Part shown: positions 308-19,515 of the stretch, one piece after another
Numbering within the stretch: the first letter of the stretch is position 1
How the letters are laid out: each line of letters starts with the position of its first letter
Assembly: GCF_032878875.1 (NCBI RefSeq)
Contig: NZ_CP118157.1
Span: forward strand, 1,736,001 to 1,800,000
Direction: 5' to 3'
Source: Microbacterium sp. AB
Lineage (GTDB): Bacteria > Actinomycetota > Actinomycetes > Actinomycetales > Microbacteriaceae
DNA length: 64,000 nucleotides
The notes under the pieces: model-generated
What the model was told of the DNA's origin: nothing
Seen by the model: the letters and a program-made list of their open reading frames with translations, nothing else
The model's database searches: none
Made by a program: the position numbers and the translations under genes

Positions 308-447
308 AGCGCCCAAACCAGGACGCGCGCCAGCACGTCCTTACACCCGCCGCTCGTCAGCAGAGGTGCCGCTCGTCCGCGCAGTGGCCGGTGCTGTCGG
401 CGACCGATTCGGAGTCGGAACTCACCCTGCTGCGGCTGGTCCTCCTG

Positions 448-813: not shown

Positions 814-901
814 GGCGGCTACTCCTTTGGGTCGGATCACTTCGTCTCCTAGACTGGCAACAATAGAAGACACTCCATGTCATCTTTAGGAGGAGTATTC
901 G

Positions 902-1867: not shown

Positions 1868-1954
1868 TCCGAGACTCTGACCCACGAAGCTAACCAGACG
1901 ACAGACCATGACGACAGACCATGCACGTATGCCACGGCGGGGCCGTGGTGCGCA

Positions 1955-1984
1955 CCTCCCTCATGAGACGACTCATGAGGGAGG
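1955..1984 (+). promoter_or_regulatory. Perfect 12-bp inverted repeat sequestering the relaxase RBS
   Basis: The arms CCTCCCTCATGA (1955-1966) and TCATGAGGGAGG (1973-1984) are perfect complements around the 6-nt spacer gacgac. The 3' arm supplies the GGGAGG ribosome-binding site of the ATG at 1990, so the folded RNA would hide it. The 5' flank shares GCGCACCTCCCTCA with the hairpin before the gene at 1-275. A palindrome beside a MobF relaxase could also be part of an oriT or an operator. Confidence 0.6.
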
Positions 1985-1989
1985 CCCAG

Positions 1990-2580
1990 ATGAAGGGCGG
2001 GGTGATCCTGTTTCACGGCAGCGGGGCCGCCGCACGCCGGTACGTCGAGGCCGACCGCTCTCGCGCCGACGAGTACTACCTGGGCGCTGACGACGCCGTA
2101 GCCGAGTACGCGGTACTCAACGGCAGAGGCGAGGTCACTGCCGTCCGTTTCCTGTCGGCTGTCGAGTACGAGGGATGGGTGGACTGGATCAACCCAGAAA
2201 CGGGCGAGTCGATGGGCACCCCGCGCGCGGCCGCCGAAGGTACGAAGGGGTCGCCGTTGTTCGCGGACATGACGATCAACGCACCCAAGTCCCTGTCGGT
2301 CGCTGCTGCCCTGCACCCCGAGGTTTCCGAAGCACTCGACGCCGCTCAACACGACGCGCTGGCGGAGATTCGGCGGTGGCTCGGTCAGCACTCGGTGACC
2401 AGGGTGGGGCCGCGTGACGCGCGGGAGGTCGTGCCTATCGAGCACATGCAGGTCGTCGGTATCCGGCATAAGACCTCGCGGGCGGGTGATCCGCACCGGC
2501 ATATTCACATGCAGATCGGCACGAGGGTGTGGGCGGCTGGGAAGTGGCGGGCGCTGGATACGGCGGCGCTGTTCAAGTAG
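1990..2580 (+). pseudogene. MobF (TraA/TrwC-type) conjugative relaxase, N-terminal part ended by an in-frame amber codon
   Basis: A 196-residue relaxase domain. It has a tyrosine pair (DEYYLG) near residue 35, the site where MobF enzymes carry their strand-nicking tyrosines. It also has a metal-binding histidine cluster (PHRHIHMQI) about 20 residues before the end. The frame stops at TAG 2578-2580 inside the conserved stretch ALDTAALFK-QGAIRAMG and continues in the same frame without other interruption to 5442. Homologues, as I know them, have a glutamine at this point (CAG to TAG), so this looks like one nonsense mutation in an otherwise full-length gene. The start at 1990 is chosen over the upstream ATG 1921 because GGGAGG lies 5 nt before it. 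A suppressor or a separate translation restart could restore partial function; otherwise the protein is dead. Confidence 0.8.
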
Positions 2581-2598
2581 CAGGGTGCGATCCGTGCG

Positions 2599-5442
2599 AT
2601 GGGTACGGCGGTGATCGCCGCGCACCCGCAGCTCGCACAGACCCTCGCCAAGCACGGTCTCACCCTCGATCCGGCCAGCGGCGAGGTGACCGAGTTGGAG
2701 CCGTTCAACGGGGTCATGTCGAAGCGGTCAGCGCAGATCAAGAAGAACCTGGAACGTCTCGAAGCCGAGTGGGAGCAGGCGCATCCGGGTGAGGAGCTTG
2801 GCCCGGTGATGACGGCACGGTTACAGGGAATCGCCTGGACTCATCAGCGACCCGAGAAGAAGCCCGCCGACCTCAAGAACGATCAATGGTGGGTGCAGGA
2901 ACTCCGCGAGGCCGGATACGACCCTGCAACCTCTGAGCACCGCGCCGTACAACCGGCGGTCAGCCTGGATGACCTGGCCGTGCAGGAGGTTGCATCGCGG
3001 GCGCTGGACCGCAGCGCAGCGAGCGCATCGACGTGGACACGGCACACCATCCAGGAGCACGTCACCCGGATCACCACCGAGGAAGGCGTGCAGGCGACGC
3101 CCGGCGAGTTGCGGGAGTTCATCAACTTGGCGACCGAGCTTGCCGCCTCGGATTGCTTCTCCGTCCTGCCGCCAGACGCGGCGACACCGGAGCACGTCGC
3201 GCACCTGACCAGCCTCAGCGTGGTCGCTGCCGAGACCGCGCTACGCGACCAGCTCACCGCCGCGACACCGGAGCGGGAGCCGGAGCACCCCGACGTGACC
3301 AAAGTTGCACAAGCCGCCCGGCTGGACGCGGGGCAGACGGTCGCGGCTGCGGCGGTTGCCTCGACCGATCCGCTCGTGATCGTCGAAGGCGCGGCGGGCA
3401 GCGGCAAGACCACGATGTTACGCACCGCGATCACCATCGCCGCCGAACACGGCAGGCCGTCGCGAGTGGTAGCACCGACATTGCGAGCCGCGCAAGTCTC
3501 GCACAAAGAACTTGGGGTGCCAGCGACGAGCGTTGCGGCGCTCGTCCACGCACACGGCTGGCGGTGGAACAGCGACGGCGTATGGACGCGCCTCAGCCCT
3601 GGTGACATCGACCCCGAGAATGGGCGCACCTACACCGACCCAGCCGAGGGAGCGCGGCTCGCGAGAGGCATGCGCGTGATCGTGGACGAGACCGGGATGC
3701 TCGACCAAGACACCGCCCACGCACTCCTCACCATCACTGCCGAGGCTGGGGCGAGCGTCGCGCTGGTCGGCGACCGCGCCCAGCTCCCCGCAATCGGCCG
3801 TGGCGGGGTGCTCGACATGGCCGCGCAGATTCGCGGACGCACCTACGACATGACCGAACTTCACCGCTTCCGTGATGCTGAGTACGCGGCGCTCACGCTG
3901 ACGATGCGCGACCGGGAGGGCCCCGGGGAGGTCTTTGACCGGCTCGGCGCGCTGGGGCTCGTCACCGTGCACGCCGACGATGAGCAGGTCCGCGAGCACA
4001 TCGCTGCGCATCCGCGCAATGGTGAGGCGATCACCGTCGCCACCAACGAAGAGGCGGCGGCGTTGAACGAGCGCGTCCGCACCGGCCGGATCGAGCGAGG
4101 TGAGGTCGATGACGCGGTGACGGCGACTGGCAGCGACGGCTTGCCCATCGGTCGGGGTGATGTGATCCAGACCCGGCGAAACGACACCACGCTCGGGGTC
4201 GCGAACCGGCAGCAGTGGATCGTGCAGCATGTCATCGATGACGGCACCGTCTACGCGCGCGAAGCCGCCAGTGGTTGCAAGAACCGCCGCACCGTCACCC
4301 TGCCCGCCGAGTACGTGGCAGAGCATGCGCACCTGTCCTATGCGGCGACCGCGTACGGCGTCCAAGGCGCAACCGTCGACGCCTCGCACACGGCGCTGAC
4401 CGAGGCGACGAGCGCGGCAGGTGTTTACGTCGGGATGACGAGAGGCCGGGAGACCAACCGGCTGCATGTCGTCGCTGAGAGCATGGCGGACGCGCGAGCG
4501 CAGTTCATCGAGGCGATGCAACGCGACCCCGCAGACCGGGGCCTCGATCACGCCACCGCTCAGGCAGTCGAGGCCGTTCGCGGCATTGTCAGGGAAGGTC
4601 CTGTCAGGCTCGTCACCGGCGAACTCGCTCGGCTTGACCAGGAGGCCGAACGCGCCCAGCGGCAGACGGAACGGTGGGAGCAGATCGCCACACGCCTCGA
4701 TACCCAACGCGCTGCGCACCGAACCGAGGACGACGAAACCGCGACCGTACTCCGCAAGGTCGAGCACGAGGCCGGGCGGGTGCGTGCCGAGGTCGCGGGG
4801 CCGCTCACCGTGCAGGCCAAGACCGACGGCGCGGCCTACCTCGCGACCATGCAGACCGAGGCGGACGCAAGTGCCCGGCTCGCCACGGCAGGGAGGTTCG
4901 GCAGGCGTAGAGCGCGGGCCGAGCACCAGGCCGCGACCGCACAGGCTGGCGCGGCTCGGGCGAGCTTGCGCGCAACATGGGGTGAGCTGCCCTGCACCCC
5001 TGAATCGCTCTCTGCATGGGCGGCGCAGGCAGCGGCACGCCGAGCCGAGAGCGACCCCCGCGTGACCGAGGCCGACCATGCCGTCGAAACTGCGCACGCC
5101 GGACAAGAAGCGACGCAGCGGCGGCACAACCGGGAACGCCTGGCATTGCTGGTCAGCGAGCTCGGAGCCGACGAGGCGCGTCGCGACCAGTTCGGGATGC
5201 GCACCATCAACCCGAACCGCACCGCCCAGGATGCCCGCGCGAGAGCAGCCGTGGCCCGTGCCGAAGCCGACGAACTCCGCAGTCTCCCTGCCAACGATGC
5301 CGCACGGCGCATCGAGGCCAAGCGCGCCGAGCAGGAACAGATACGACAGCGGGCAGCGCAGCGGGCACGGCAACTCGACCCGCTCGACCGCGGTCCGCGC
5401 CGCCATGATCTGGGCCGCGACGGGCCAGGACGCGGCCTGTGA
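2599..5442 (+). CDS. MobF relaxase, C-terminal RecD/TraI-like helicase part (same gene as 1990-2580, separated by amber)
   Basis: A 947-residue open frame in the same frame as the relaxase domain. It starts at the first ATG after the amber codon, and no convincing ribosome-binding site precedes that ATG. The superfamily 1 helicase core is intact. It has Walker A EGAAGSGKTTML near residue 260, Walker B VIVDETGML near 360, QLPAIGRGG near 395, the TAYGVQGATVD motif near 585 and VGMTRGRETNRL near 610. The last 300 residues are Ala/Arg/Glu-rich and probably coiled coil. In a working relaxase this domain unwinds the nicked strand during conjugation. Without the N-terminal domain it cannot act as a relaxase. 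No coupling protein or type IV secretion gene is visible in the window. Confidence 0.8.
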   Translation: MGTAVIAAHPQLAQTLAKHGLTLDPASGEVTELEPFNGVMSKRSAQIKKNLERLEAEWEQAHPGEELGPVMTARLQGIAWTHQRPEKKPADLKNDQWWVQELREAGYDPATSEHRAVQPAVSLDDLAVQEVASRALDRSAASASTWTRHTIQEHVTRITTEEGVQATPGELREFINLATELAASDCFSVLPPDAATPEHVAHLTSLSVVAAETALRDQLTAATPEREPEHPDVTKVAQAARLDAGQTVAAAAVASTDPLVIVEGAAGSGKTTMLRTAITIAAEHGRPSRVVAPTLRAAQVSHKELGVPATSVAALVHAHGWRWNSDGVWTRLSPGDIDPENGRTYTDPAEGARLARGMRVIVDETGMLDQDTAHALLTITAEAGASVALVGDRAQLPAIGRGGVLDMAAQIRGRTYDMTELHRFRDAEYAALTLTMRDREGPGEVFDRLGALGLVTVHADDEQVREHIAAHPRNGEAITVATNEEAAALNERVRTGRIERGEVDDAVTATGSDGLPIGRGDVIQTRRNDTTLGVANRQQWIVQHVIDDGTVYAREAASGCKNRRTVTLPAEYVAEHAHLSYAATAYGVQGATVDASHTALTEATSAAGVYVGMTRGRETNRLHVVAESMADARAQFIEAMQRDPADRGLDHATAQAVEAVRGIVREGPVRLVTGELARLDQEAERAQRQTERWEQIATRLDTQRAAHRTEDDETATVLRKVEHEAGRVRAEVAGPLTVQAKTDGAAYLATMQTEADASARLATAGRFGRRRARAEHQAATAQAGAARASLRATWGELPCTPESLSAWAAQAAARRAESDPRVTEADHAVETAHAGQEATQRRHNRERLALLVSELGADEARRDQFGMRTINPNRTAQDARARAAVARAEADELRSLPANDAARRIEAKRAEQEQIRQRAAQRARQLDPLDRGPRRHDLGRDGPGRGL

Positions 5443-5661
5443 CACGGGCCACGGTGGTTGACCCCAGATCACGCAGGAGCATGTGCCTTATACGCGCATC
5501 GGCGACACCACGATTTCGAAACCTGGCCACTGTCTGAACGCGGTCTCGGGCTTGTTGACTCGGTGAGTAAGCGAGGCGCTGCCGTCCGAGATGCGGCGGT
5601 CACTGGTGCACCAGGCGGCAGCGCTGGTGTCGGGGTTCAGTCAGTCGCTCTGGTGCAAGCT

Positions 5662-5690
5662 GCATGTAACTGAGTATCATGGTTACATGC
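5662..5690 (+). promoter_or_regulatory. Promoter with palindromic operator overlapping the start of the ABATE/CGNR gene
   Basis: Perfect 9-bp arms GCATGTAAC (5662-5670) and GTTACATGC (5682-5690) flank an 11-nt spacer holding a -10 box TATCAT (5675-5680). The ATG at 5687 lies inside the right arm and 6 nt after the -10 box, so the transcript is probably leaderless. A protein bound here would block both promoter and start, which suggests autoregulation by the adjacent DNA-binding protein. The 220 bases upstream (5443-5661) show no gene. Confidence 0.6.
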
Positions 5691-6301
5691 GTTTCGATCC
5701 ACCAACCGGACAGTGGTTCATCGCCCACGACGGGCAACGCTGGTGGTTCGATTCGGGCTCGATCGCGTTCGACTTCGCCTACACCGGCGGCTTCCCCGGC
5801 CCGCCTGAGTGGGAGTTCTGGCATGGGCCGGAGGACGCCGCCAGCTGGTGGCGTGAACGGTTCGGAGTCGATGTTCCGGTGAGCGCGGCTGACTACGCGC
5901 GGGCACGCGAGCTACGCCAACGGATCGCACAGTCCGTGATCGCGGTATCCCACGGTCAACAGCTTCCGGTCGCGGCGGCTACCGTCATCGATGCGTGGGC
6001 AGCGCTTCCCGATGTGCCCCCTCAGTTGATGGCGGAGCCACCGGTCACCGTCGAACGCCTACTGGCCGCCATCGGACGAGCCGCTGTCGCCGCGCTGAGC
6101 CAGACCGACCGCGTGCGCATCTGCGGTGCCAGCGACTGCGCGGTCATGTACCTGGACACATCACGTTCGGGCAATCGTGCCTGGTGCTCAATGCAGCGGT
6201 GCGGCAACCGACACAAAGTGCGAGCGCTGCGCGCACGCCGCGCGACATCCGGCAGAACCAACGATCCAGCACACCGTTCAGAACAGGAGAACGACTCATG
6301 A
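5687..6301 (+). CDS. ABATE / CGNR zinc-finger regulator
   Basis: A 204-residue protein with an N-terminal ABATE domain (roughly residues 1-140). It ends in a CGNR zinc finger (RICGASDCAVMYLDTSRSGN then WCSMQRCGNRHKVRALRARR). The four cysteines CGASDC and CSMQRC are the zinc ligands. The family is predicted to be DNA-binding stress-inducible regulators. The start at 5687 matches MRFDPPTG and the leaderless promoter; the 32 additional upstream codons have no RBS. Its stop overlaps the RidA start by 4 nt (ATGA), so it heads a three-gene operon. It lies between relaxase fragments and is cargo of the element. Confidence 0.88.
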   Translation: MRFDPPTGQWFIAHDGQRWWFDSGSIAFDFAYTGGFPGPPEWEFWHGPEDAASWWRERFGVDVPVSAADYARARELRQRIAQSVIAVSHGQQLPVAAATVIDAWAALPDVPPQLMAEPPVTVERLLAAIGRAAVAALSQTDRVRICGASDCAVMYLDTSRSGNRAWCSMQRCGNRHKVRALRARRATSGRTNDPAHRSEQENDS

Positions 6302-6696
6302 CTCTCACGCACATCAACCCCGCGGCTCTGCACAAGAACCCCGCCTTCTCTCAAGGCGTCCTGGTGACGGGCGGTGCGCTGCTCGTCGTCGGCGGCCAGC
6401 ACGGCACCGACGAGAAGGGCGAACTCGTCTCCGCCGACCTCGGTGAACAGACCAAGCAAGCACTACGGAACGTCCTCACGGTGCTCGCCGAAGTGGGGGC
6501 CGACGCGAGCCACGTCGCGCGGCTCGGGGTCTATCTCGCAGCCGGGGCCGACGCCGGAGCTGGATACACCTCGGCGTTCGAGGTGTGGGGCGCGAATCCC
6601 GCCGCCGTGACGGTGCTGACCGTCCCCTCGTTTGCGCGTCCCGGCGTTCTCGTGGAAATCGAAGCGCTGGCCGCAGTGCCGGAGAACGCATCATGA
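6298..6696 (+). CDS. RidA family protein (YjgF/YER057c/UK114)
   Basis: A 132-residue RidA-fold protein. RidA enzymes hydrolyse reactive enamine/imine intermediates made by PLP enzymes. Visible features are the N-terminal FSQGVLVTGGALLVVGGQHGTDEKGELV, the central QTKQALRNVLTVLAEVGADASHVARLGVY, and the C-terminal PSFARPGVLVEIEALAAV. In canonical RidA an arginine in the C-terminal motif binds the substrate carboxylate; here FARPGVLVEIEALA keeps that arginine. ATGA overlaps at both ends (ABATE upstream, YdeI downstream) indicate translational coupling. Confidence 0.9.
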   Translation: MTLTHINPAALHKNPAFSQGVLVTGGALLVVGGQHGTDEKGELVSADLGEQTKQALRNVLTVLAEVGADASHVARLGVYLAAGADAGAGYTSAFEVWGANPAAVTVLTVPSFARPGVLVEIEALAAVPENAS

Positions 6697-6929
6697 CGCC
6701 GCGACGACCGACTCAGCAGATGCCGGACGACGTTGCGGAACTCGTTGCCCAGCACGGGGTGCGCAGCGCGTACGACGAGCGTCCTGCCTACCAACGCAAC
6801 GACTACCTCGCATGGATCGACCGCGCGAAGCGACCCGAGACACGCAGCAAACGGATCAATCAGATGCTGAGCGAACTCGAAGAAGGCGGCGTCTACATGA
6901 GGATGCGACACCGGCCATCCGAACGATGA
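6693..6929 (+). CDS. Small YdeI/OmpD-associated family protein
   Basis: A 78-residue protein. The core PAYQRNDYLAWIDRAKRPETRSKRINQMLSEL matches the C-terminal helical domain of the YdeI or OmpD-associated family, some members of which are linked to bacteriocin or peptide protection. It is shorter than full YdeI proteins (about 190 residues) and represents only the C-terminal domain, which also occurs alone. The start overlaps the RidA stop by 4 nt (ATGA at 6693-6696). It is the last gene of the ABATE-RidA-YdeI operon. Its function in this context is unknown. Confidence 0.78.
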   Translation: MTPRRPTQQMPDDVAELVAQHGVRSAYDERPAYQRNDYLAWIDRAKRPETRSKRINQMLSELEEGGVYMRMRHRPSER

Positions 6930-6987
6930 ACACGCGGTACCTGTACAGGACGGCCAGAGCTCAACCCGCTCGCCGCTCGCCGCACGC

Positions 6988-7091
6988 CGCACGATCACAA
7001 TGATGCACGACAAACGACATCACCCGCGGTCGGGGTCATACAGCCCGAGCCACCGGTAGATTGTGGAACCGCGCACACGCGCACGATCACA
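6988..7091. repeat. 12-bp direct repeat pair bounding an 80-bp segment before the second relaxase stump
   Basis: CGCACGATCACA occurs at 6988-6999 and 7080-7091. Between the copies the minus strand can encode RGSTIYRWLGLYDPDRG, which resembles the C-terminal HTH end of a serine resolvase and may be a resolvase scrap. The repeat could mark a recombination junction; it could also be chance within GC-rich DNA. The rest of 6930-7096 shows no gene. Confidence 0.35.
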
Positions 7092-7096
7092 GGTGA

Positions 7097-8104
7097 GTGC
7101 GTTTGGGGAACCTCGGCTACGCGGTCACCGCACATCGCGCGCAGGGCTCCACCGTCGACACCGCGCACGCGATCGTCCACTCCTCCTCGATGACACGAGA
7201 GACCTTCTACGTCTCGATGACCCGAGGTCGTGAATCGAACATCGCCTACGTCGCCACCGACGAAGCGCACCTCGAACGCCACCAGCAGACCGAGACAGAG
7301 GTCACCGCCAGAACGGTCCTCTATGGCGTGCTCCAGCACGAGGGAGCGGAGAAGTCCACCCACGAGACCATCAGCGCAGAGCAGCACGCCTGGACCTCGA
7401 TCCGGCATCTGGCCGATCAGTACGAGACGATCGCCCAAGAAGCCCAAGCTGAGCGTGTCACCGATCTCCTGACCCGTGCCGGCCTGGACCGCGCGCAACT
7501 CGACGAGGTGATTGCCTCAGAGAGCTTCGGATCACTCATTGCAGAACTACGCCGAGCTGAGGCCAACGGTCATCCTTCAGATCAGCTCATCTCGCGCGCG
7601 GTCGTGGCAGGTGGCCTCGATCAGGAGCCAGAATTGGCGACTGCGCTCCGAAACCGCGTCAGCCGCTTGGCCGATGCGCGCTCCGGAGGAACCCGACGTC
7701 GGGGACGAAAGCGCCTTGTCGCCGGACTGATTCCTGAAGCCACCGGTCCCATGCCCGCCGACATGGGGCGCGCGCTGACAGAGTTGAAGGAAGCGATCGA
7801 AGCCCGAGCTCGCGCTCTCGTGGCCACGGCAATTGCAGAAGACCAGCCTTGGACCCGCGCACTCGGGTCTCAACCGCCCGCGTCTAGGAGGCAAGAGGCG
7901 TGGCGAGCCGTGGCCGCGATGATCGCGGCATACCGAGACCGCTATGGCGTCACAGGACCACATCCTCTCGGGAACATGCCAGTTGCTCATCTTCAACGCC
8001 TCGACCGTGAACGAGCGGTCGTCGCTCTCCGCGACCTCCAGAACTCGTCTAGCGCCTACACAACGAGTGCATCAACCGCCAGCCGCGACGTCATCGATCT
8101 GTAG
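7097..8104 (+). pseudogene. C-terminal stump of a second MobF relaxase/helicase
   Basis: The reading frame begins abruptly within the last helicase motifs: LGYAVTAHRAQGSTVDTAHAIV followed by FYVSMTRGRESNIAYVATDE. These correspond to TAYGVQGATVD and VGMTRGRETNRL of the 2599-5442 gene. The remaining 270 residues are the charged helical C-terminal tail. The relaxase domain, Walker A and Walker B are all missing, and an in-frame stop (7094-7096) sits directly upstream of the GTG. The sequence is clearly not a duplicate of the first relaxase, so it came from a different element. It cannot be a functional helicase. Confidence 0.82.
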
Positions 8105-8262
8105 CCGAGCAGTGGTCGCCCTGCATCGCCGCGCAGGCGAGTCCGCGGTTTGGATCGGCTCACGGTGATTGGGTTCGCGACGGAGCGGGGCACACTTCAC
8201 GACGCACGCGCTTCTGCGGCAGGGACCCGGGGTGCCTTCCGTCGCGTGGGGGCGGTGGCCCC

Positions 8263-8268
8263 TACGAT
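8263..8268 (+). promoter_or_regulatory. Probable leaderless promoter -10 box of the AAA-protease operon
   Basis: TACGAT lies 6 nt before the ATG at 8275, the same spacing seen at many genes in this window. No Shine-Dalgarno sequence fits this start well. The 158-nt stretch upstream of it (8105-8262) contains no gene that I can support. Confidence 0.5.
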
Positions 8269-8274
8269 GGGAGC

Positions 8275-9249
8275 ATGGCGGGCAGACACTTGAAGGAGAT
8301 CTTCAAAGCGTTCCAGACGCGCGATGAGTTGACCTTCCGTCGTGTGGCCATGGAGATCATCGACGAAGAGGAAGCCAAGCATCACAACGCCCTGGCCCGG
8401 GATCTCAAGAGACTTCTGGTGGCTGGAGGAGCGCCACTCGACACCGGCTCCACCATCATCGTTCCGGCACCGCCGAAAGATCGCGAAGGTGACTGGGACC
8501 TCGGCGAGGTCACGGAGCCGACCCGCCTGCTCGACGATCTTATTCTTGACCCTCGACTCGTCGGGACCCTTGATAGCCTCGTCGAAGAAGTCCGTCAGTG
8601 GTCGACACTTGACGCAGCTGGCATACCTCGGCGGCAAAGGCTGCTCTTGGAAGGTCCTCCAGGCTGCGGGAAGACGACCGCAGCCGAAGCGCTTGCCACC
8701 GAACTAGGTCGGCCGTTCCTACTTGTCCGCCTCGATGCTGTCGTGTCCTCCTACTTGGGCGAGACAGCCAGCAACCTCCGCCGGATCCTCGATTACGCCG
8801 ACCAGGCACCGTTCGTTGTGCTCTTCGACGAATTCGACGCCCTCGGCCGCTCGCGAGACGACCAAGCGGAGCACGGTGAGATGAAGCGAGTTGTCACAGC
8901 GTTCCTCCAGATGACGGACCGGTACCGCGGTCCCAGCTTGCTACTGGCCGCGACCAACCACTCTGAGTTGCTTGACCAGGCTCTATGGCGACGCTTCGAT
9001 GAGGTCTTGACCTTTCGAAAGCCGAACGTGCACGAGTTGCGCAGGCTGTTGCGGCTTAGGTTGCGTCATGTTTCACATCATGGGCTCAACATCGACCTCA
9101 TCGCGAGCAAACTCAAGGGACTTCCTCACGCGGCGGCGGAGAAGCTGGTCGTAGACGCCAGGCGTCAGGCGATTCTGCGCGGATCGCACACGGTAGAGGC
9201 AGTGGACATCAACGCGGTGTTGTTGGGTGTTACTGGTCGGCCTTGGTGA
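8275..9249 (+). CDS. AAA+ ATPase paired with an S8 protease (candidate defence/conflict system)
   Basis: A 324-residue protein with an N-terminal helical region of about 70 residues and a single AAA+ module. Walker A is GPPGCGKT (127-134), Walker B is VLFDEFDA (182-189), sensor 1 is the Asn of AATNH (228), and the arginine finger is in ALWRRFDE (239-240). It resembles the FtsH/Vps4-like classical AAA clade that remodels proteins. The next gene, a subtilisin-like protease, starts at the nucleotide after its stop, so the two are translationally coupled and probably work as ATPase and protease of one machine. Codon use is less GC-biased than in the chromosomal genes on the right, consistent with acquisition. 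The role in defence is inference from context (degraded mobile element, operon pairing). Confidence 0.9.
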   Translation: MAGRHLKEIFKAFQTRDELTFRRVAMEIIDEEEAKHHNALARDLKRLLVAGGAPLDTGSTIIVPAPPKDREGDWDLGEVTEPTRLLDDLILDPRLVGTLDSLVEEVRQWSTLDAAGIPRRQRLLLEGPPGCGKTTAAEALATELGRPFLLVRLDAVVSSYLGETASNLRRILDYADQAPFVVLFDEFDALGRSRDDQAEHGEMKRVVTAFLQMTDRYRGPSLLLAATNHSELLDQALWRRFDEVLTFRKPNVHELRRLLRLRLRHVSHHGLNIDLIASKLKGLPHAAAEKLVVDARRQAILRGSHTVEAVDINAVLLGVTGRPW

Positions 9250-11598
9250 GTGCCAAACATGCCCCAGCACCTTCTTCTACCAAACCCACGACCGCTTCCC
9301 TCCCGTCGCGCAAGTGGTGCGGGAGGAGGTGGGCCGCAGCGCCAACGCGGAGAGCATGGCCGGCACCTGCAGGAGCAACTGCTACAGACAACGCGTCTGC
9401 CGCGACGTCTTGACCAGGGTGTCGATCCGCGGCTCGTATTCAAGATCAATGCTCGTTCTCGTCCGACGGAAACTTCGTTCGAGGGGCGCGGTCTGCACGT
9501 GCTTGGCGAGAGCGTGGACTACACATACTTTGTGCTCGCCGATGATTCTGGATCAGCGCTCTCTCAGGCGATCGATCGGTATGTTCGGACGGGTGAACTT
9601 CGCTCATTCTTCGACCTGATAGATGACATTGAGCCTTACGGTTCTGAAGATCGACGAGGTCCGGGACTCGCCGACATCGGCGATGGCTTTGCGGGAGAGC
9701 AGGTTCTCGATGTCAGCGTATGGGCCGCAGGAACACTCGATGAAGCGCGAGCACGAGTCCAGATAATCGAAGCTGTGCTCGCCGCTACGAGTGGACGAAT
9801 ACTGCTGCGATCGGTGAGTTCACGGCGCAGCTATCTCCGGGTCTCGGTGACGTCTGACGGCATGCGAGATCTACTGGAGACTAGTGTGGTCGAGACGGTG
9901 CGCACGCCACCCGTGCCGTATCTGGACTTCCGCGACTGGCGAGACCTTGGGGTGGGAGATATCCGCCGTGCCGAGACGTCAGGTGCCGTCGTCGGAGTAC
10001 TAGATGACTCGCCTGAGTCCGCACACCCGCTTCTCAATGGTCTCGTGCTTTCAGACGACTCTCTAGCGCCGCCGGACTATCAATGGCAACAACGCGGAAG
10101 CCACGGGTCCGAGGTGATTGGTCGCGTCCTGTACCCGCGTCTGCACGAGGAACTTCGTGACTTGACGGCTTTGACGGCCGTGGGCGCTGTTCGCGTCGTT
10201 AGAGTCCTTGAGCCTGACCCTCAGCGTGGCGGCGATGCGACTCGCTTCCCGACGTATGCGCTGCCTCACGAGGTGGTTGCCCAGGGTATCCGCCACCTTC
10301 ACGACACCTACGGCGTCAAGATTTTCAACATGTCGGTCGGATATTCCGAACCGTATAGCGATCTGCATGTCGGACCGCTTACCGAGACTCTTGACGATCT
10401 CATTCGTGAACTAGACATCGTCATCGTCGTACCCACCGGCAATGCCGGGATCACGCTGGATGCTCGCACTGTGAGCGGCCATCACATCATCGACGACAAG
10501 CCCGACTACTTCTTCACCCCAGAGCACCGAATCGCGGAGCCAGCACCAGCAGCTCTCGCTGTCACAGTCGGGTCGATAGCCCTAAGCGGAGCGGCCGCCG
10601 AACTCGGCCGCATCGGATCGCGGGCGGTTGCCGAAGCAGAAGAGGCTTCTCCCTTCAGTCGTTCAGGCCCAGGACTTGGCACCGCACAGAAACGGCTGAA
10701 CAAACCAGAATTGACGCACTACGGCGGAAACATTGTTGTCAACGACTCCGGGCACGCTGTTCGAAATGACCTTGGAGCGAGTCTTGTAAGTACCTCTTAT
10801 CGTGCGGGAGACGGCCGCTTGTTTGCCGTCGTGAATGGAACGAGTTTCGCTGCGCCTGCTGTAGCTAGGGTCGCGGCCGATATTTCATACGAGTATCCCG
10901 ACGCGTCAGCCAATCTCATCCGCGCACTGCTGGCGTCGAGTGCAGCGCACCCTGTTCCGGCGGCCGTGCTGCCCGAACTGCACAACCGGTCCAAGATCTA
11001 TGGCTACGGAAAGCCCCGCCGGGAACGGGCGATCGCAAGTGATCAGAACCGAGTCACGATGACGTATGAGGGAACGATGTCAACCGACACCGTTCAGATT
11101 CATCCATTTCCTGTCCCGGAACTGTTCCGTCGCGGGAGTGGCGGTGAGCGGGCGATCACTGTCGCTCTCGCCTTTGATCCTCCTGTACGCCGGCAACGCC
11201 GCGAGTACCTTGCAGGTGCTATGAAGATTGACGTGTATCGCGACATCGACCCGGACGAGCTTGCTGAGATTCTCAAGAAGCAAGATCCCGACGATCCGAA
11301 CGAACCGATCAAGGGGCGGCAACGACTAAACCTGGAGCCCGGGAGCAACTCATTCACAAACAGCACGTTGCATGTCCGGCGTTGGAGTGCAAAGAACTCC
11401 TTTGTCAATGACGACGAGACCTTCTTCGTCGTTGTTACACACAAGGCGCAGACGTGGGCTCGCGATGATCCCCAGTACAAACAGCAACGGTATGCGCTAG
11501 CGGTGACGCTCGAGGACCAGCACTTGGTGCAGGCTGACCTTTACCAACTTCTGACCCAACAAGTTCAGGTGCCGGCGCGAGTTCGACTTCGGGCCTGA
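9250..11598 (+). CDS. Subtilisin-like serine protease (S8 family) coupled to the AAA+ ATPase
   Basis: A 782-residue protein with no signal peptide, so probably cytoplasmic. The N-terminal 240 residues are not catalytic and contain the basic segment PRPLPSRRASGAGG and a mixed alpha/beta region. The S8 catalytic residues are all present: Asp in GVLDDSPESAHP (near 253), His in GSHGSEV (285), oxyanion Asn in VPTGNAG (398) and Ser in NGTSFAAPAVARVA (532). A C-terminal domain of about 200 residues, including TVALAFDPPVRRQRREYLAG, is unlike secreted subtilases and may bind a partner or substrate. The GTG at 9250 abuts the ATPase stop; the ATG at 9259 is an alternative start. The intracellular S8 plus AAA pairing suggests a regulated effector protease, perhaps anti-phage. 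Confidence 0.9.
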   Translation: MPNMPQHLLLPNPRPLPSRRASGAGGGGPQRQRGEHGRHLQEQLLQTTRLPRRLDQGVDPRLVFKINARSRPTETSFEGRGLHVLGESVDYTYFVLADDSGSALSQAIDRYVRTGELRSFFDLIDDIEPYGSEDRRGPGLADIGDGFAGEQVLDVSVWAAGTLDEARARVQIIEAVLAATSGRILLRSVSSRRSYLRVSVTSDGMRDLLETSVVETVRTPPVPYLDFRDWRDLGVGDIRRAETSGAVVGVLDDSPESAHPLLNGLVLSDDSLAPPDYQWQQRGSHGSEVIGRVLYPRLHEELRDLTALTAVGAVRVVRVLEPDPQRGGDATRFPTYALPHEVVAQGIRHLHDTYGVKIFNMSVGYSEPYSDLHVGPLTETLDDLIRELDIVIVVPTGNAGITLDARTVSGHHIIDDKPDYFFTPEHRIAEPAPAALAVTVGSIALSGAAAELGRIGSRAVAEAEEASPFSRSGPGLGTAQKRLNKPELTHYGGNIVVNDSGHAVRNDLGASLVSTSYRAGDGRLFAVVNGTSFAAPAVARVAADISYEYPDASANLIRALLASSAAHPVPAAVLPELHNRSKIYGYGKPRRERAIASDQNRVTMTYEGTMSTDTVQIHPFPVPELFRRGSGGERAITVALAFDPPVRRQRREYLAGAMKIDVYRDIDPDELAEILKKQDPDDPNEPIKGRQRLNLEPGSNSFTNSTLHVRRWSAKNSFVNDDETFFVVVTHKAQTWARDDPQYKQQRYALAVTLEDQHLVQADLYQLLTQQVQVPARVRLRA

Positions 11599-11684
11599 TT
11601 GCAGACCAGCGCATAAACTGTGGCAGGGGAGCGGAGCTGCAGAGCAGCCGAGATGAGCAGGTTCCCTCGTGGCATGCACTGCCG

Positions 11685-12167
11685 TCATGATTGCGCCGTG
11701 CTTCTGCGTGCGGGGCCACCCACGCCTGCGCGGATCTCAACACCCGCGTCCAGAAGCCTCGTGCGCATTGTGCCAGCGGAAACACCGAACTTTTCCCCGA
11801 CGCTCGCCAAGGATGCGCCACTCTCATACATGTAGGCAGCTTGGGAGATCTGTGCACGCGTGAGACGTGTTCTTGGCCGCGCCGCGCGAGCTTCGTACAG
11901 GACCTGACGGACCTTTCGCCGGTCGATCTCCAGGTCGGCAGCGATCAGCTTCATTGGATCTCCGGCGCGAAACCGCGAAACTACAATCTCCAAGTCTTCG
12001 GGATCTAGCTCGCGGCGAGTTCGATGCCCAGCCACAGGGCCACGTTGATCCTCCGACTGTCGCCTTGGAACCGAGCTCAAGAGTCCCTTTCGGATGCGCC
12101 GAACCTCTCTGGCCAGGCGTTCTGGCGTTGCTCCGGTGTTTGAACTTCTTCGCCCCACCTCCACCAT
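11685..12167 (-). CDS. HTH DNA-binding protein with recombinase-like C-terminus
   Basis: A 160-residue protein, convergent with the S8 protease gene. It appears to contain two HTH-like units. One is near residues 60-100 (LEIVVSRFRAGDPMKLIAADLEIDRRKVRQVLYEAR). The other is near 105-150 (LTRAQISQAAYMYESGASLASVGEKFGVSAGTMRTRLLDAGVEIR) and resembles the C-terminal HTH of resolvases and Hin-type recombinases. No catalytic recombinase domain is visible. The frame stays open upstream to 12461, but the ATG at 12167 is the first start that leaves a coherent protein. The alternative start at 12365 would add 66 residues that cross a hairpin. It could be a regulator of the neighbouring protease operon or a resolvase remnant. 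Confidence 0.6.
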   Translation of the reverse strand: MVEVGRRSSNTGATPERLAREVRRIRKGLLSSVPRRQSEDQRGPVAGHRTRRELDPEDLEIVVSRFRAGDPMKLIAADLEIDRRKVRQVLYEARAARPRTRLTRAQISQAAYMYESGASLASVGEKFGVSAGTMRTRLLDAGVEIRAGVGGPARRSTAQS

Positions 12168-12182
12168 AGAAGACGTACGAGA

Positions 12183-12215
12183 ACACCCGGCATCAGTTGA
12201 TGCCGGTTCGGGTGT
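12183..12215. repeat. Strong inverted repeat just upstream of the HTH gene
   Basis: CGGCATCA (12188-12195) and TGATGCCG (12198-12205) are perfect 8-bp arms around GT. They are nested in outer arms ACACCC (12183-12188) and GGGTGT (12210-12215). It lies 16 nt upstream of the HTH start, so it may be that protein's operator or a site for recombination. A transcription terminator is also possible, but no T-run follows. Confidence 0.45.
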
Positions 12216-12793
12216 CAGGGTGGCGAGCGGCTCAGCGAGTCGGATCGTCGCCCTTTCGTCTTCCCTGATCGCGATGCCGTTGGTGAGGGCGTAGAGGGCC
12301 GCGCAGCCGACCAGCACGCTGAGTGCATCGGCGAAGTGCGCAGCCAGGGAGCTTGTCGCTCTCATTCCGGAGCCGTCTGCGGTTCGGTCAGCTCGGCCGG
12401 TTTCCTGGGGGTGGGAGGCGAGGCGTTCGTCGAACGCGGGGCGTCGGAGGTGGCGGCGCATGGGCGCGGACGACGGCCGTGCGGTCGAGCACGACCCGAG
12501 CCTTCTCCCGTCCGCCGGGGGACACGGCGCCCGTGGCGAGGTGCTCGAGCGCGAGACGACGAGGCTGCTGCAGGCGTTTCTGCGCGCAGCGAGGACGGTG
12601 ACATGGAAGCGCTCTCCGGGCCGTCGCGCGGTTCGCCATCGGAGCGGCGGCTCTGCACGAGGCCCGTCACGCCGTGCGGTTCGTGACCGTGAACGGCACG
12701 CCGGGGGCGAGTGTGATGCTCTCCGGCATCCCGCATGTGGTGGTGATCGTCATCTTGTGGCGGACGTGCAAGGATCTCGGCCACGACCGACCG
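12216..12793. other. Gene-poor junction between the element and the accessory chromosome
   Basis: Several short open frames cross this stretch on both strands, but none has a good start, a consistent codon bias and a recognisable product together. The minus-strand segment 12365-12170 encodes an alanine-rich hydrophobic peptide (AHFADALSVLVGCAALYALT) that could be a scrap of a membrane protein. I see no integrase and no tRNA gene that would mark an attachment site. Confidence 0.4.
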
Positions 12794-13015
12794 ATCCCGT
12801 CGGCCGAGACCACCGTGCGGCGCGAGTGGAACGACGCCGAGCGCACCCGCGCGAAGGCCCGCGCCACCGCGGTCCTCGCCGGAACCCCCGATCGGGTGCA
12901 CGCCGAGCTGACCGACCTGGCCGAGACGCACGGGGCCTGCGAGATCATGCTCACCGCCCTCGCCAGCGACCCCGCCGACCGGCTCGCCTCGTACCGGCTG
13001 CTGGTCGAACAGTTC
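12794..13015 (+). pseudogene. C-terminal remnant of a luciferase-like (LLM class) flavin oxidoreductase
   Basis: About 74 codons encode IPSAETTVRREWNDAERT, then LAGTPDRVHAELTDLAETHGACEIMLTALASDPADRLASYRLLVEQF. This is the standard C-terminal end of bacterial luciferase-like monooxygenases (GTP-x-RV block, then the SYxLLAExF end). The catalytic TIM barrel, normally 250 or more residues upstream, is absent, and the sequence before 12794 is unrelated. The frame reads past the usual C-terminus and overlaps the end of the LysR gene. It is a deletion scar at the edge of the mobile region. Confidence 0.65.
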
Positions 13016-13919
13016 ACGAGATGGGGGCCCGGTAAGGATCGTTCTCGGAGTGTGTTGCGTGCAGACCGTCGAGGAACGCTCGGGCGGCGGGTGAGGGGTT
13101 GAACGTGCTCCAGGCGAGGTACTCGATGCGTGTCGGTCCGTCTGCGACCGTGATGACGCGGAGGTCGTCGCTGTCGGGCACGACGGCCGGTGAGAGCAGC
13201 GCGATCACGAGGTCGTGCGTGACGAGGCCCAGGATGAGGTCGGTGCTCATCGCCTCGAAGGCGACCTCGCGTCGGATGCCCGCTGCCTGGAACGCGAGAT
13301 CGGACGGTGCGCGGCCGGGGGTTCCCGCGGGGAAGTCCACGAAGGTCTCACCGACCAGGTCGTCCAGCCGCAGTCGGCGTCGCCCGGCGAGCGCATGGCG
13401 GGCGGACACCACGGCGACGAGCCGTTCACGGGCCAGCACACGCGTGTTCAGGCCCTTGGGCGGCGTGGTGTCGGGCAGTCCGAGCACGGCGACGTCCATG
13501 CTCCCTTCCGTGATCGCGGTGATGAACTCGTCGCTGCCGCCGCCGCGGAGACTGATCCGCACGGCCGGATGGGCGCGGTGGAACTCTCCGAGTGCGGCGG
13601 GGATGTCGATCGCGGTCGCCGTGGGGATGACACCGATGGTCAGGGTGCCACGAACCTGGCCCGTGGAGGCGGCAGCGTCTGCGACGGCGCGCTCAGCCGC
13701 ATCCAGGCTCGCCTTGGCTGCGCTCAGGAACGCCTCACCCGCTGCGGTCAGCTCCACGCGGCGACTGGTGCGAGCGAACAGGGTGACGCCGAGCTCACGT
13801 TCCAGTGCCTTGATCTGGTGACTGAGCGCGGACTGCACCACATGACAGCGCTCCGCCGCGCGAGTGAAGTTGCGCTCCTCGGCCACCGCGACGACGTAGC
13901 GCATCTGCTGAAGCTCCAT
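13014..13919 (-). CDS. LysR-family transcriptional regulator
   Basis: A 301-residue LysR-type regulator. The N-terminal winged HTH is MELQQMRYVVAVAEERNFTRAAERCHVVQSALSHQIKALERELGVTLFARTSRRVELTAAG. It is followed by a linker helix and a periplasmic-binding-protein-like effector domain from about residue 90 (TLTIGVIPT) to the end. The start at MELQQM is chosen because the 10 residues upstream are not part of the fold. It is divergent from the EamA transporter gene across 78 nt. A TGATGCA-GG-TGCATCA palindrome at 13927-13942 next to its start is a plausible binding site. The adjacency suggests control of that exporter. Confidence 0.92.
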   Translation of the reverse strand: MELQQMRYVVAVAEERNFTRAAERCHVVQSALSHQIKALERELGVTLFARTSRRVELTAAGEAFLSAAKASLDAAERAVADAAASTGQVRGTLTIGVIPTATAIDIPAALGEFHRAHPAVRISLRGGGSDEFITAITEGSMDVAVLGLPDTTPPKGLNTRVLARERLVAVVSARHALAGRRRLRLDDLVGETFVDFPAGTPGRAPSDLAFQAAGIRREVAFEAMSTDLILGLVTHDLVIALLSPAVVPDSDDLRVITVADGPTRIEYLAWSTFNPSPAARAFLDGLHATHSENDPYRAPIS

Positions 13920-13997
13920 ATGCCGATGATGCAGGTGCATCACTGGCATGACAAGAATGTGTTGGACTCATAAAAGCGCGGCACCCACGATGGAGGG

Positions 13998-14918
13998 GTG
14001 AGCACCACAACACCCCTGATCCCGGCCTTGCAGGTCACGCCCTCTGGTCGAGTGTCGTGGACGGCGCTGACGGCGATCGCCCCCGCGGCGTGGGGCACCA
14101 CCTATATCGTCACGACGCATCTGCTGCCCGAAGGACATCCCTTGTTCGCGGCGCTGATGCGTTCCCTGCCTGCCGGGGTGATCGCCGTTCTGATCGCGCG
14201 GCGCCTGCCCCACGGGTCGTGGTGGTGGAAGAGCCTGGTGCTGGGCGCTTTGAACATGGGCGCGTTCTTCCCGCTGCTCTTCCTCGCTGCGCAGCACCTG
14301 CCAGGCGGCGTCGCCGCGACTCTCGGCGCGGCGCAACCGATCCTGGTCGCGTTCCTGGCGGTCGCGATCCTCTACGAACGACTCTCCACCTGGCGGGTCG
14401 CCTGGGGAGTGATCGGAATGATCGGCGTCGCTCTCGTGGTGCTCGGCCCCGACGCGGCCCTCAGCCCGATCGGAATCCTCGCCGGACTCGGCGGGGCTGT
14501 GTCGATGGGCACCGGGGTGGTCCTGACCAAGCGGTGGGGACGCCCCGAGGGGCTCTCGGCGATCGGCCTGGCCGGATGGCAACTCACCGCCGCCGGGCTC
14601 GTCCTGATCCTCCCGGCCCTGGTGATCGACGGCATCCCCGCCGGCATCGACGGCCCCGCCGTGGCCGGATATCTCTGGCTCGGCCTGATCGGAGCACTGG
14701 TCACATACAGTCTCTGGTTCTCCGGCGTCCGCCGCCTTCCCGTGACCGCGACCGCGCTGCTCGGGCTGCTGTCCCCGCTCGTGGCCGCGATCCTCGGCGC
14801 CGCCATCGCAGGCGAAGCCCTCACCCTTGTCCAGCTCACCGGCTTCGCCGTCGCGCTCACCGCGATGGTCGCCGGTCAACTCACCCCGCCGAGAAAGAAC
14901 GCAGAAACACCGGCATGA
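13998..14918 (+). CDS. EamA/DMT-superfamily transporter (probable metabolite exporter)
   Basis: A 306-residue membrane protein with ten predicted transmembrane helices arranged as two EamA repeats. Repeat 1 runs from about 20 to 145 (GTTYIVTTHLLPEGHPLFAALMRSLPAG). Repeat 2 runs from about 155 to 295 (GLIGALVTYSLWFSGVRRLPVTATALLGLLSPLVAAILG). EamA proteins export small metabolites such as amino acids or purines; the substrate here is unknown. The GTG start is preceded by a GGAGG 4 nt upstream. It is divergent from the LysR gene and its stop overlaps the start of a broken NAD(P)-binding gene (ATGA at 14915). Confidence 0.92.
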   Translation: MSTTTPLIPALQVTPSGRVSWTALTAIAPAAWGTTYIVTTHLLPEGHPLFAALMRSLPAGVIAVLIARRLPHGSWWWKSLVLGALNMGAFFPLLFLAAQHLPGGVAATLGAAQPILVAFLAVAILYERLSTWRVAWGVIGMIGVALVVLGPDAALSPIGILAGLGGAVSMGTGVVLTKRWGRPEGLSAIGLAGWQLTAAGLVLILPALVIDGIPAGIDGPAVAGYLWLGLIGALVTYSLWFSGVRRLPVTATALLGLLSPLVAAILGAAIAGEALTLVQLTGFAVALTAMVAGQLTPPRKNAETPA

Positions 14919-15105
14919 GAATCGCCGTCTTCGGCACGACCGGCATGGCCGGGGGCGCGATCGTCACCGAAGCCCACGATCGCGGCCACCACATCGTCGC
15001 GCTCTCCCCGACGCCCCGATGAACGGCTCACCATCTGAGCCATCGACGTCGACGTCGCCGACGCCGACGCACTGAATCCGGTGCTGGCGGACAGCGACAC
15101 TGTTG
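14915..15105 (+). pseudogene. Degraded NAD(P)H-binding (NmrA-like) oxidoreductase, N-terminal scrap
   Basis: MRIAVFGTTGMAGGAIVTEAHDRGHHIVALSPTPR is a dinucleotide-binding Rossmann start with the G-x-x-G-x-x-G glycine motif. It ends at TGA 15020-15022 after 35 codons. A shifted frame continues the family pattern (DERLTI, then a stop, then AIDVDVADADALNPVLADSDTV), so at least one frameshift and one nonsense change have occurred. The rest of the gene is missing or scrambled before the TetR gene at 15180. The ATGA overlap shows it was once co-translated with the EamA transporter. Confidence 0.65.
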
Positions 15106-15179
15106 CGCCCCCCGCGTTCATCGGAGGCTCGTGGTGCGCCTTCGCCCGCGTCGTGGCGAGAGCCGTCTCCGCACGTCGA

Positions 15180-15830
15180 TCATCCTGGCCTGCCGGTGGG
15201 TCGAGCTGCGGCACGCCGGGCCTCCACGGGGGAGTCCGCGCGACCGCCGCGGAGGAGACGTTCGGTCATGTCCCGCCCGCTTCGGAGCATCTCGTCGTCG
15301 CCGTCGATGCCGCGGTGGGCGATCGCGCCTTCGAGAAGAAGGAACACCAGGTCCGCCGCCGTGTCCGCATCGCCCGCCTCGGGGTGGTCGGTGCGGATGA
15401 GGTCCGCGAGACGACGTCGCACGGCCTGCTTGTGCGCTCGGATCACCCGGTGGCCGCGATGGTCCACGGGCAGTTCCCCGGCGGCGTTGATGAACGCGCA
15501 GCCGCGATCGGAGGACTCGGCGTCCTGGGTGTAGGAGTCCCAGACGGCGAGCACCCGCGATGCCGGGTGCTCCGCCAGGCGTCGTTCCATGCGCTCCCAC
15601 CACCGCTGATGCCGGGCTTGCAGATACGCCTCGACCAGGCCGTCCTTCGAGCCGAACCGGTCGTACAGCGTGCGCTTGGTGACCCCCGACTCGGCGGCGA
15701 TGGTGTCGACCCCCACCGCATGGATGCCGCGACGGTAGAACAGATCGGAGGCGACCTCCAGGATGCGCCGCGCCCCGGCGGTGAGCGCGGGCGCCAGCAG
15801 CACCTCGTCAGGCTCTCGATCCGGCGTCAT
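15180..15830 (-). CDS. TetR/AcrR-family transcriptional regulator
   Basis: A 216-residue TetR-type repressor. The N-terminal HTH covers about 20-65 (ARRILEVASDLFYRRGIHAVGVDTIAAESGVTKRTLYDRFGSKDGLVEAYL). The C-terminal ligand-binding domain contains RGCAFINAAGELP, typical of the AcrR-like subgroup. The ATG at 15830 has a strong AGGAGGG ribosome-binding site 8 nt upstream; an upstream in-frame start lacks one. It is divergent from the MFS transporter. The intergenic region holds a TCACAGATC/GATCTGTGA inverted repeat, its likely operator. Confidence 0.92.
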   Translation of the reverse strand: MTPDREPDEVLLAPALTAGARRILEVASDLFYRRGIHAVGVDTIAAESGVTKRTLYDRFGSKDGLVEAYLQARHQRWWERMERRLAEHPASRVLAVWDSYTQDAESSDRGCAFINAAGELPVDHRGHRVIRAHKQAVRRRLADLIRTDHPEAGDADTAADLVFLLLEGAIAHRGIDGDDEMLRSGRDMTERLLRGGRADSPVEARRAAARPTGRPG

Positions 15831-15870
15831 CGTCGTGCTCCCTCCTGTGGTCGACTCCACGGCTCACCCG

Positions 15871-15922
15871 TTGACTTCACAGATCAGTATACCTACGCTG
15901 AAAATGGTTTACAGATCTGTGA
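15871..15922 (+). promoter_or_regulatory. Promoter and TetR-type operator of the MFS gene
   Basis: TTGACT (15871-15876), a 17-nt spacer and TACGCT (15894-15899) form a good promoter reading toward the MFS gene. Perfect 9-bp arms TCACAGATC (15877-15885) and GATCTGTGA (15914-15922) flank the -10 region with 28 nt between them. A repressor bound to both arms would cover the promoter. The local A+T content is well above the surroundings. Confidence 0.6.
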
Positions 15923-15935
15923 GATTGGAGCGGGT

Positions 15936-17150: not shown

Positions 17151-17192
17151 GCCGCCGCCTCGCCCGGATTCGCCAGGGTCGGGCGTCGGGCG

Positions 17193-18038: not shown

Positions 18039-18202
18039 GACCTCGACGATACGTCGCCGCAGGTGCGTCTCGACCCCCGGGAGCCGCGATCAGGCCACGG
18101 GCCCGCGATTGGCCCGCGGCGGAACGCGCGGACCCCCGCGCCGCCGCGTACCTCGTGAGACATCCACCCCACAGCGCCGCGGATCGCGCGTACGGTGAGA
18201 GC

Positions 18203-18379
18203 ATGTGGACAGTCATCGTGATCCTGCTCGTTGCCTGGCTCGTGCTGTCGATCGTCGGCTTCGCGTTCAAAGGCCTGCTCTGGCTGGCGATCATCGGAAT
18301 CGTGCTCTTCGTGGGCACCGTCGTCTTCGGCGTCATCAGAAGCCGTGTCAGCCGTAAGGGAGGCGGCGGAACGCGGTAG
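18203..18379 (+). CDS. Small membrane protein
   Basis: A 58-residue protein with two closely spaced hydrophobic helices (WTVIVILLVAWLVLSIVGFAF and LLWLAIIGIVLFVGTVVFGVI) and a basic C-terminal tail (RSRVSRKGGGGTR). It looks like the small hydrophobic proteins common in Actinobacteria; I know no function. The start at 18203 sits 6 nt after TACGGT, supporting a leaderless transcript. An upstream in-frame ATG at 18155 would add 16 unlikely residues. It is followed after 30 nt by the desaturase gene, so the two may be co-transcribed. Confidence 0.72.
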   Translation: MWTVIVILLVAWLVLSIVGFAFKGLLWLAIIGIVLFVGTVVFGVIRSRVSRKGGGGTR

Positions 18380-18409
18380 CGCGCTCCGTCTGCCTGTGCG
18401 GAGGACCTC

Positions 18410-19501: not shown

Positions 19502-19515
19502 GACGGCGGACGACG

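What the first reader, a model, noticed from the sequence alone, without database searches (positions are those of the whole stretch)
8275..11598. AAA+ ATPase directly coupled to an intracellular S8 subtilisin-like protease on a mobile-element remnant
The two genes abut (TGA at 9247-9249, GTG at 9250). The ATPase keeps Walker A, Walker B, sensor and arginine-finger residues; the protease keeps Asp/His/Asn/Ser of the S8 triad and oxyanion site but has no signal peptide, plus a large non-catalytic N-terminal region and an unusual C-terminal domain. Cytoplasmic regulated protease/ATPase pairs in mobile DNA fit phage-defence or toxin-antitoxin logic, where the ATPase senses or unfolds and the protease executes. 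Less GC-biased codon use and flanking relaxase scraps support horizontal acquisition. From memory such AAA/S8 neighbours recur in mobile islands, but I cannot check how well characterised they are.
Basis: partly seen in the sequence, partly recalled or inferred. Interest (0 to 1): 0.78.

Follow-up and report, generated by a model that had tools for sequence, protein, structure and literature searches.

The report
IetAS ATPase–protease toxin/defence gene pair
The two neighbouring genes look like an intact copy of IetAS, an already described bacterial pair in which an ATPase partners an intracellular cutting enzyme linked to stabilising mobile DNA and resisting phages, so the find is sound but largely ordinary.

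Summary
Window 8275-9249 (+) encodes a 324-aa AAA ATPase. The next ORF encodes a 779-782-aa S8 protease with an intact Asp/His/Asn/Ser site and no signal-like stretch. One correction: relatives place the protease start at ATG 9259, nine bases after the ATPase stop, not at GTG 9250.

The pair is IetAS. PADLOC's IetA and IetS models match at E 4e-85 and 8e-84. In print, relatives act as toxin-antitoxin modules, and ietAS is listed as an anti-phage system whose mechanism was still called unknown in 2025. Pairing is conserved: 31 of 32 related IetS loci have an IetA-like gene upstream; the last one ends at a contig edge.

The pair lies about 14 kb from a tRNA-Ala gene where synteny with two relatives ends and a serine recombinase begins, among conjugation-gene remnants. 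Its codon use looks foreign (GC3 0.60-0.70 against 0.91-0.94 in four chosen ORFs from 17 kb on).

Added here: the setting, a branch-specific C-terminal Arg-x-Trp tail on IetA, an intact pore loop, and a possible built-in prodomain in IetS. Function was not testable.

The parts
8275..9249 (+). ietA: AAA+ ATPase, 324 aa; N-terminal helical part (about 1-50), linker, classical AAA module with pore loop Y160-L161-G162, C-terminus R-P-W
   Evidence: PADLOC IetA E 4e-85; Pfam AAA E 5.6e-31; model pLDDT 70.7
9259..11598 (+). ietS: intracellular S8 (subtilisin-like) protease, 779 aa from the likely ATG start (782 aa from GTG 9250); N-terminal region about 1-225, catalytic domain about 226-593, C-terminal beta-rich part about 598-760
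11685..12461 (-). 258-aa HTH protein (weak sigma-70 region 4 match), convergent neighbour; probably not part of the system
   Evidence: Pfam Sigma70_r4 E 5e-06; tblastn against 47 loci found only the window's own copies and one weak hit (L007, E 8e-05), but many loci hold only about 1.5 kb of flank
7097..8104 (+). relaxase/helicase tail fragment upstream of ietA (335-aa ORF)
   Evidence: NCBIfam TraA_Ti E 2.2e-9 over model positions 671-722 only
1921..5442 (+). TrwC/TraA-type relaxase in two same-frame ORFs (1921-2580 and 2599-5442) separated by an in-frame stop: mobile-element context
   Evidence: Pfam TrwC E 1.2e-31; AAA_30 E 2.2e-40; frame check

Best explanation
The pair is a member of the IetAS family, carried among the remnants of an integrative mobilisable element.

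Most likely way it works: IetA, an AAA+ ATPase with an intact nucleotide site, arginine fingers and an aromatic pore loop, forms a ring that handles IetS and keeps this cytoplasmic subtilisin-like protease harmless while both are made. When the element is lost, or when a phage replication complex disturbs the pair, IetS is released or switched on, cuts cellular proteins and stops the cell. That would stabilise the element and abort infection.

Shown here: identity, intact active sites, conserved pairing, lack of a signal-like stretch, mobile context. Shown in print for relatives only: the protease is toxic and the ATPase neutralises it. Inferred: ring formation, threading, the trigger, the cut substrates, and that this copy is expressed and active.
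For: PADLOC IetA E 4e-85 (model 7-315 of 374) and IetS E 8e-84 (29-789 of 795).

NCBIfam anti-phage IteA (E 6.1e-72) and IteS (E 9.2e-27) are the best matches for the two proteins, though below the curated cut-offs.

An IetA-like frame lies upstream on the same strand in 31 of 32 related loci: 28 of 32 in the first flanks, 3 of the remaining 4 after longer flanks, 1 at a contig end. The genome's two other S8 proteases have none in the short flanks held.

In 31 loci plus the window: catalytic Asp and His in 31 of 32 rows (1 gap), Asn and Ser in 32 of 32. For IetA (30 rows, two short fragments dropped): Walker B, sensor 1, both Arg and pore-loop Gly in 30 of 30, pore-loop Y/F in 28 of 30.

Toxin/antitoxin behaviour of relatives: passages of PMC5006074 (E. 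coli test of sgiAT), PMC8562856 (mycoplasma), PMC6755753 (minimal genome). Phage replication components linked to ietAS: cited second-hand in PMC10732053 and PMC10286901.
Against: Scores fall below NCBI's equivalog cut-offs (242.8 against 510 bits; 93.6 against 900), so this is a divergent member and need not behave exactly like tested ones.

Expression is unproven: no sigma-70-like promoter was found, though shuffles average only 0.5 such sites, so the scan says little.

In PMC5006074 the pair gave no post-segregational killing from its own promoter. In PMC11878078 the tie of IetAS to phage resistance is a correlation; no lysogens of the IetAS-bearing phage were obtained, and the mechanism is called unknown.

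IetA's model alone is not specific: it rings in 14 of 14 control genomes. In the loci, one upstream hit (L033, 52 bits, a 108-aa fragment at the locus edge) scores below the genome's own FtsH-sized AAA hit (84 bits).

The wider IetS set includes weak matches down to E 5e-21.
Confidence: 0.72

Rival explanations
1. The pair is purely an addiction (stability) module for the mobile element; any phage effect is a side product. IetA is the labile antitoxin and IetS the stable toxin.
For: The pair sits among relaxase pieces and a coupling-protein gene downstream of a recombinase. 60 plasmid records hold a relative (all under 60% identity), 32 typed conjugative. No record of the phage collection matched. 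PMC5006074 describes SGI1 maintenance and cites pTiC58 stability.
Against: IetAS is catalogued as anti-phage in PADLOC and NCBIfam. PMC11878078 reports IetAS on a Pf prophage and correlates it with phage resistance. PMC8562856 calls plasmid maintenance very unlikely for the chromosomal mycoplasma pair.
Confidence: 0.25
2. IetS is made as a zymogen held by a built-in prodomain, and IetA acts as an ATP-driven remodeller that sets or releases that inhibition, rather than as a simple antitoxin.
For: The IetS model has a beta-alpha-beta-beta-alpha-beta run at residues 148-215, well predicted, just before the catalytic domain, the order recalled for subtilisin propeptides. Foldseek's first hit is a pro-form, ProN-Tk-SP, E 6.9e-24. 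IetA keeps an aromatic pore loop in 28 of 30 rows.
Against: No Pfam inhibitor-I9 match in any of 63 members at E up to 1, nor for the fragment alone. Of the 50 VIA-align rows shown none starts before model residue 220, which is inconclusive. Foldseek's long alignments to pro-forms have rmsd about 20, so the domains are not placed as in those structures. The toxin/antitoxin tests in print fit a plain neutraliser.
Confidence: 0.2
3. A general protein quality-control ATPase/protease pair, not tied to mobile DNA.
For: IetA's AAA module resembles FtsH, PAN and p97 in sequence and fold.
Against: Patchy occurrence: 12 of 394 class genomes and 15 of 396 phylum genomes, own included in both; 2 of the 12 same-genus genomes listed, own included. 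Foreign codon use, mobile context, and toxicity of relatives in print.
Confidence: 0.04
4. A decayed, silent leftover of the element.
For: The neighbouring relaxase is interrupted and no promoter-like site was found.
Against: Both frames are full length with all key residues intact; the closest IetS relative from elsewhere is 77% identical and the closest IetA 97%.
Confidence: 0.1

Closest known systems
IetAS anti-phage system (PADLOC IetA/IetS; NCBIfam IteA/IteS)
   Same: Gene order ATPase then S8 protease, model matches over most of their length, intact active sites, no signal-like stretch, mobile context.
   Different: Below NCBI's equivalog cut-offs. C-terminal R-x-W tail on IetA in 22 of 22 close relatives aligned but 6 of 31 wider loci. 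Phage effect not tested.
ietAS of Agrobacterium plasmid pTiC58 (Yamamoto 2009; known here only through citing papers)
   Same: AAA-ATPase/serine protease pair on mobile DNA.
   Different: Reported there for plasmid stability and incompatibility; here chromosomal and untested. Sequence not compared directly.
sgiAT of Salmonella genomic island 1 (PMC5006074, passages)
   Same: Two-gene operon, AAA antitoxin first, subtilisin-like toxin second, on an integrative mobilisable island.
   Different: Different host group and element; sequence not compared directly.
Mycoplasma TA132/133 (PMC8562856, passages)
   Same: 353-aa AAA-ATPase and 757-aa subtilisin-like protease in an operon; toxicity neutralised by the ATPase.
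   Different: Chromosomal pair of a minimal-genome host; sequence not compared directly.
KP-43-type and intracellular subtilases
   Different: Stand-alone enzymes without an ATPase partner (recalled).

Membership tests
IetAS | AAA ATPase matching the IetA models | tested here: met
   PADLOC PDLC02196 E 4e-85, model positions 7-315 of 374
IetAS | S8 protease matching the IetS models | tested here: met
   PADLOC PDLC02198 E 8.1e-84, model positions 29-789 of 795
IetAS | ietA upstream of ietS, same strand, adjacent | tested here: met
   8275-9249 then 9259-11598; 31 of 32 relatives likewise, one of them with a 700-base gap
IetAS | Intact Walker A/B and arginine finger; intact Asp/His/Ser and oxyanion Asn | tested here: met
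IetAS | Cytoplasmic protease without signal peptide | tested here: met
   Hydropathy scan only; no dedicated predictor
IetAS | Protease toxic alone, neutralised by the ATPase; anti-phage or stability phenotype | not testable with these tools
   Needs bench work; reported for relatives only
NCBIfam IteA/IteS equivalogs (NF042959, NF042956) | Score at or above the curated cut-off | tested here: not met
   242.8 of 510 bits and 93.6 of 900 bits: related, not the same equivalog
FtsH / proteasome-activating nucleotidase | Score at or above the curated cut-off | tested here: not met
   FtsH_fam 87.8 of 600 bits; PRK03992 92.2 of 500 bits
Type VII secretion mycosin | Score at or above the curated cut-off | tested here: not met
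   48.1 of 278.75 bits
Subtilisin propeptide (inhibitor I9) in IetS 148-215 | I9 profile match or superposable fold | tested here: inconclusive
   No Pfam match in 63 members; only the order of secondary-structure elements fits

The most novel reading that the evidence does not exclude
IetS is an ATPase-gated zymogen. Its N-terminal region carries a subtilisin-type inhibitory prodomain that is not shed but stays attached, and IetA, docked in this branch through its C-terminal Arg-x-Trp tail, uses its pore loop to pull on that region. Phage replication proteins would then tip the balance between held and released protease. This would give IetAS a concrete mechanism and a cytoplasmic, ATP-driven counterpart to zymogen activation.
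Probability: 0.15. Interest if true: 0.6.

Novelty: new member of a known kind. Interest (0 to 1): 0.24.

Why it matters
It places a divergent, intact copy among integrative-element genes next to a tRNA-Ala gene, and names testable parts (pore loop, R-x-W tail, candidate prodomain) of a system whose mechanism the passages read here still call unknown.

Tried and rejected
Secreted protease: not supported, no signal-like stretch. FtsH/PAN and mycosin membership: far below cut-offs. A second IetA-model hit in the genome (684-aa frame, E 6.2e-36) was not followed; by length it is probably FtsH-like. The convergent HTH gene as a third component: not supported (flanks short). A right-hand copy of the tRNA end: no 13-base seed in 100 kb. 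A clean empty site: not shown; the two relatives also differ from each other beyond the tRNA, so this may be a variable spot. The LysR gene at 13014 as right border: undecided, it is itself accessory (8 of 39 genus genomes, own included, at E 1e-60). Inhibitor-I9 profile in IetS: no match. The VIA-align rows shown do not cover the N-terminal region; that says nothing. Rfam in window 1-20000: none at gathering score. IetS in the phage collection: none. Other defence genes among eight chosen element ORFs: only WYL regulator models, a weak match of the L-PSP frame to PD-T4-2_B and weak matches of the relaxase tail to PDC-S68 and a type IV RecD model. Two papers asked for by id were not held. Searches on ietAS, the AAA-protease wording, IetS/IetA and sgiAT (several show only the top of longer lists) listed no mechanistic study of IetAS, in that library only. 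The host species was not identified; that it is an actinobacterium is inferred from the nearest named relatives.

Full report
Observation. The ATPase ORF at 8275-9249 and the protease ORF at 9250-11598 are present as described. Pfam finds AAA (E 5.6e-31) and Peptidase_S8 (E 1.3e-23). I aligned 25 proteases (the window plus 24 chosen, mostly full-length, from the 120 listed of 207 found) and 22 ATPases (the window plus 21 chosen from the 120 listed of 2593 found). The protease keeps D252, H285, N398 and S532 in all 25 rows, and the same residues in a 63-row alignment. The ATPase keeps Walker A, Walker B, sensor 1 and both arginines. Hydropathy shows no signal-like stretch. One correction: 22 of 24 other rows start at the Met encoded by ATG 9259, so the gap after the ATPase stop is probably 9 bases. 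Four of the six annotated plasmid relatives have gaps of 6 to 8 bases, one 20, and one is annotated with a later start.

Identity. PADLOC names the pair: IetA E 4e-85, IetS E 8.1e-84. NCBIfam's anti-phage IteA and IteS are the best matches but below their cut-offs, so the pair belongs to the family without being the same equivalog.

Distribution. A search for close copies with the protein found only the window's own among 199 family genomes at E 1e-20. The PADLOC IetS model rings in 12 of 394 genomes of the class and 15 of 396 of the phylum at E 1e-20, own genome included in both, and in 0 of 14 control genomes at that level; at E 1e-3 it rings in 5 of 14 controls. Another genome of the same genus, G362, also has an IetS (L017, E 1.4e-81), but a clearly different one (783 bits against 1420 for the window's own with my profile).

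Conserved pairing. An IetA-like frame lies upstream on the same strand in 28 of 32. Longer flanks for the other four (and for a fifth, L039) were taken: three of the four have it too, so 31 of 32; the last contig ends at the start of IetS. In L026/L042 there is a 700-base gap and a short 619-aa protease frame, and in L032 the protease frame is in pieces. The IetA call in L033 rests on a 108-aa fragment of 52 bits. The genome's two other S8 proteases have no IetA-like gene in the flanks held.

Key residues in the wide set (31 loci plus the window; for IetA two short fragments dropped, 30 rows): catalytic Asp and His in 31 of 32 rows with one gap, oxyanion Asn and Ser in 32 of 32; Walker B, sensor 1, both arginines and pore-loop glycine in 30 of 30; Walker A lysine in 24 of 30, the other 6 being gaps where the held locus cuts the frame short; pore-loop Y or F in 28 of 30. 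An aromatic-hydrophobic-glycine pore loop is, from general knowledge of AAA unfoldases, the mark of a threading ATPase. The C-terminal R-x-W is invariant in the 22 close relatives but present in only 6 of the 31 wider loci, so it is a branch feature.

Setting. Synteny with two genus relatives runs past nadD and stops at the 3' end of a tRNA-Ala gene about 5.9 kb left of the window and about 14 kb from ietA. A serine recombinase frame runs through the antisense of that tRNA. Then come an SSB-like frame, a TraG/VirD4-type coupling protein, an IS3-type transposase, a WYL regulator, a TrwC/TraA relaxase split by an in-frame stop, a relaxase tail, and ietAS. The first 4 kb beyond the tRNA in one relative finds in the own genome only the tRNA end, a 47-base hit and a 68%-identical stretch of about 500 bases elsewhere. 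The two relatives also differ from each other beyond the tRNA, so a clean empty site is not shown. A decayed integrative element is the natural reading, not a proven one. No right-hand border was found. GC3 falls to 0.605 in ietS against 0.907-0.939 in four chosen ORFs from 17 kb on.

Literature, as seen in passages. PMC5006074: SGI1 sgiAT works as toxin/antitoxin in E. coli, with no killing from its own promoter. PMC8562856 and PMC6755753: mycoplasma pairs. PMC9958689 and PMC11878078 call the ietAS mechanism undescribed or unknown; the latter correlates Pf-borne IetAS with resistance but obtained no lysogens of that phage. PMC10732053 and PMC10286901 cite phage replication components in connection with ietAS. 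PMC12755874 reports ietAS in 54% of P. freudenreichii strains. The original pTiC58 paper was not held and is known here only through citations.

Conclusion. A real, intact, apparently horizontally acquired IetAS pair: a known kind of system, in a divergent branch. The mechanism remains inferred.

Noticed in passing
window 1921-2580 and 2599-5442 (+): A TrwC/TraA relaxase lies in two same-frame ORFs separated by an in-frame TAG, so the element's own mobilisation gene looks broken.
   Followed up: partly
L048 13561-15771 (-) and tRNA-Ala L048 14029-14106 (+): A serine recombinase frame reads through the antisense of the tRNA-Ala gene, and synteny with two relatives ends at the tRNA 3' end: a likely integration site.
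   Followed up: partly
P0003 against window 9250-11598: The database copy of this protease starts about 94 residues late, dropping part of the conserved N-terminal region.
   Followed up: partly
window 5591-6301 and 5995-6696 (+): An ABATE/CGNR zinc-finger regulator overlaps a frame carrying an L-PSP (RidA) domain; the latter weakly matches PADLOC PD-T4-2_B (E 6.9e-9).
   Followed up: no
window 902-1867 (+): A WYL-domain regulator next to the relaxase, matching PADLOC's accessory WYL models (E 1.9e-38).
   Followed up: no
   Followed up: no
L032 and L039 (genome G634): One genome holds two IetS loci, one of them (L032) with the protease frame in pieces.
   Followed up: no
P0123: A 97%-identical IetA (319 aa) is listed on another, 5.5-kb contig, so a near-identical IetA exists elsewhere; its neighbours were not seen.
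   Followed up: no
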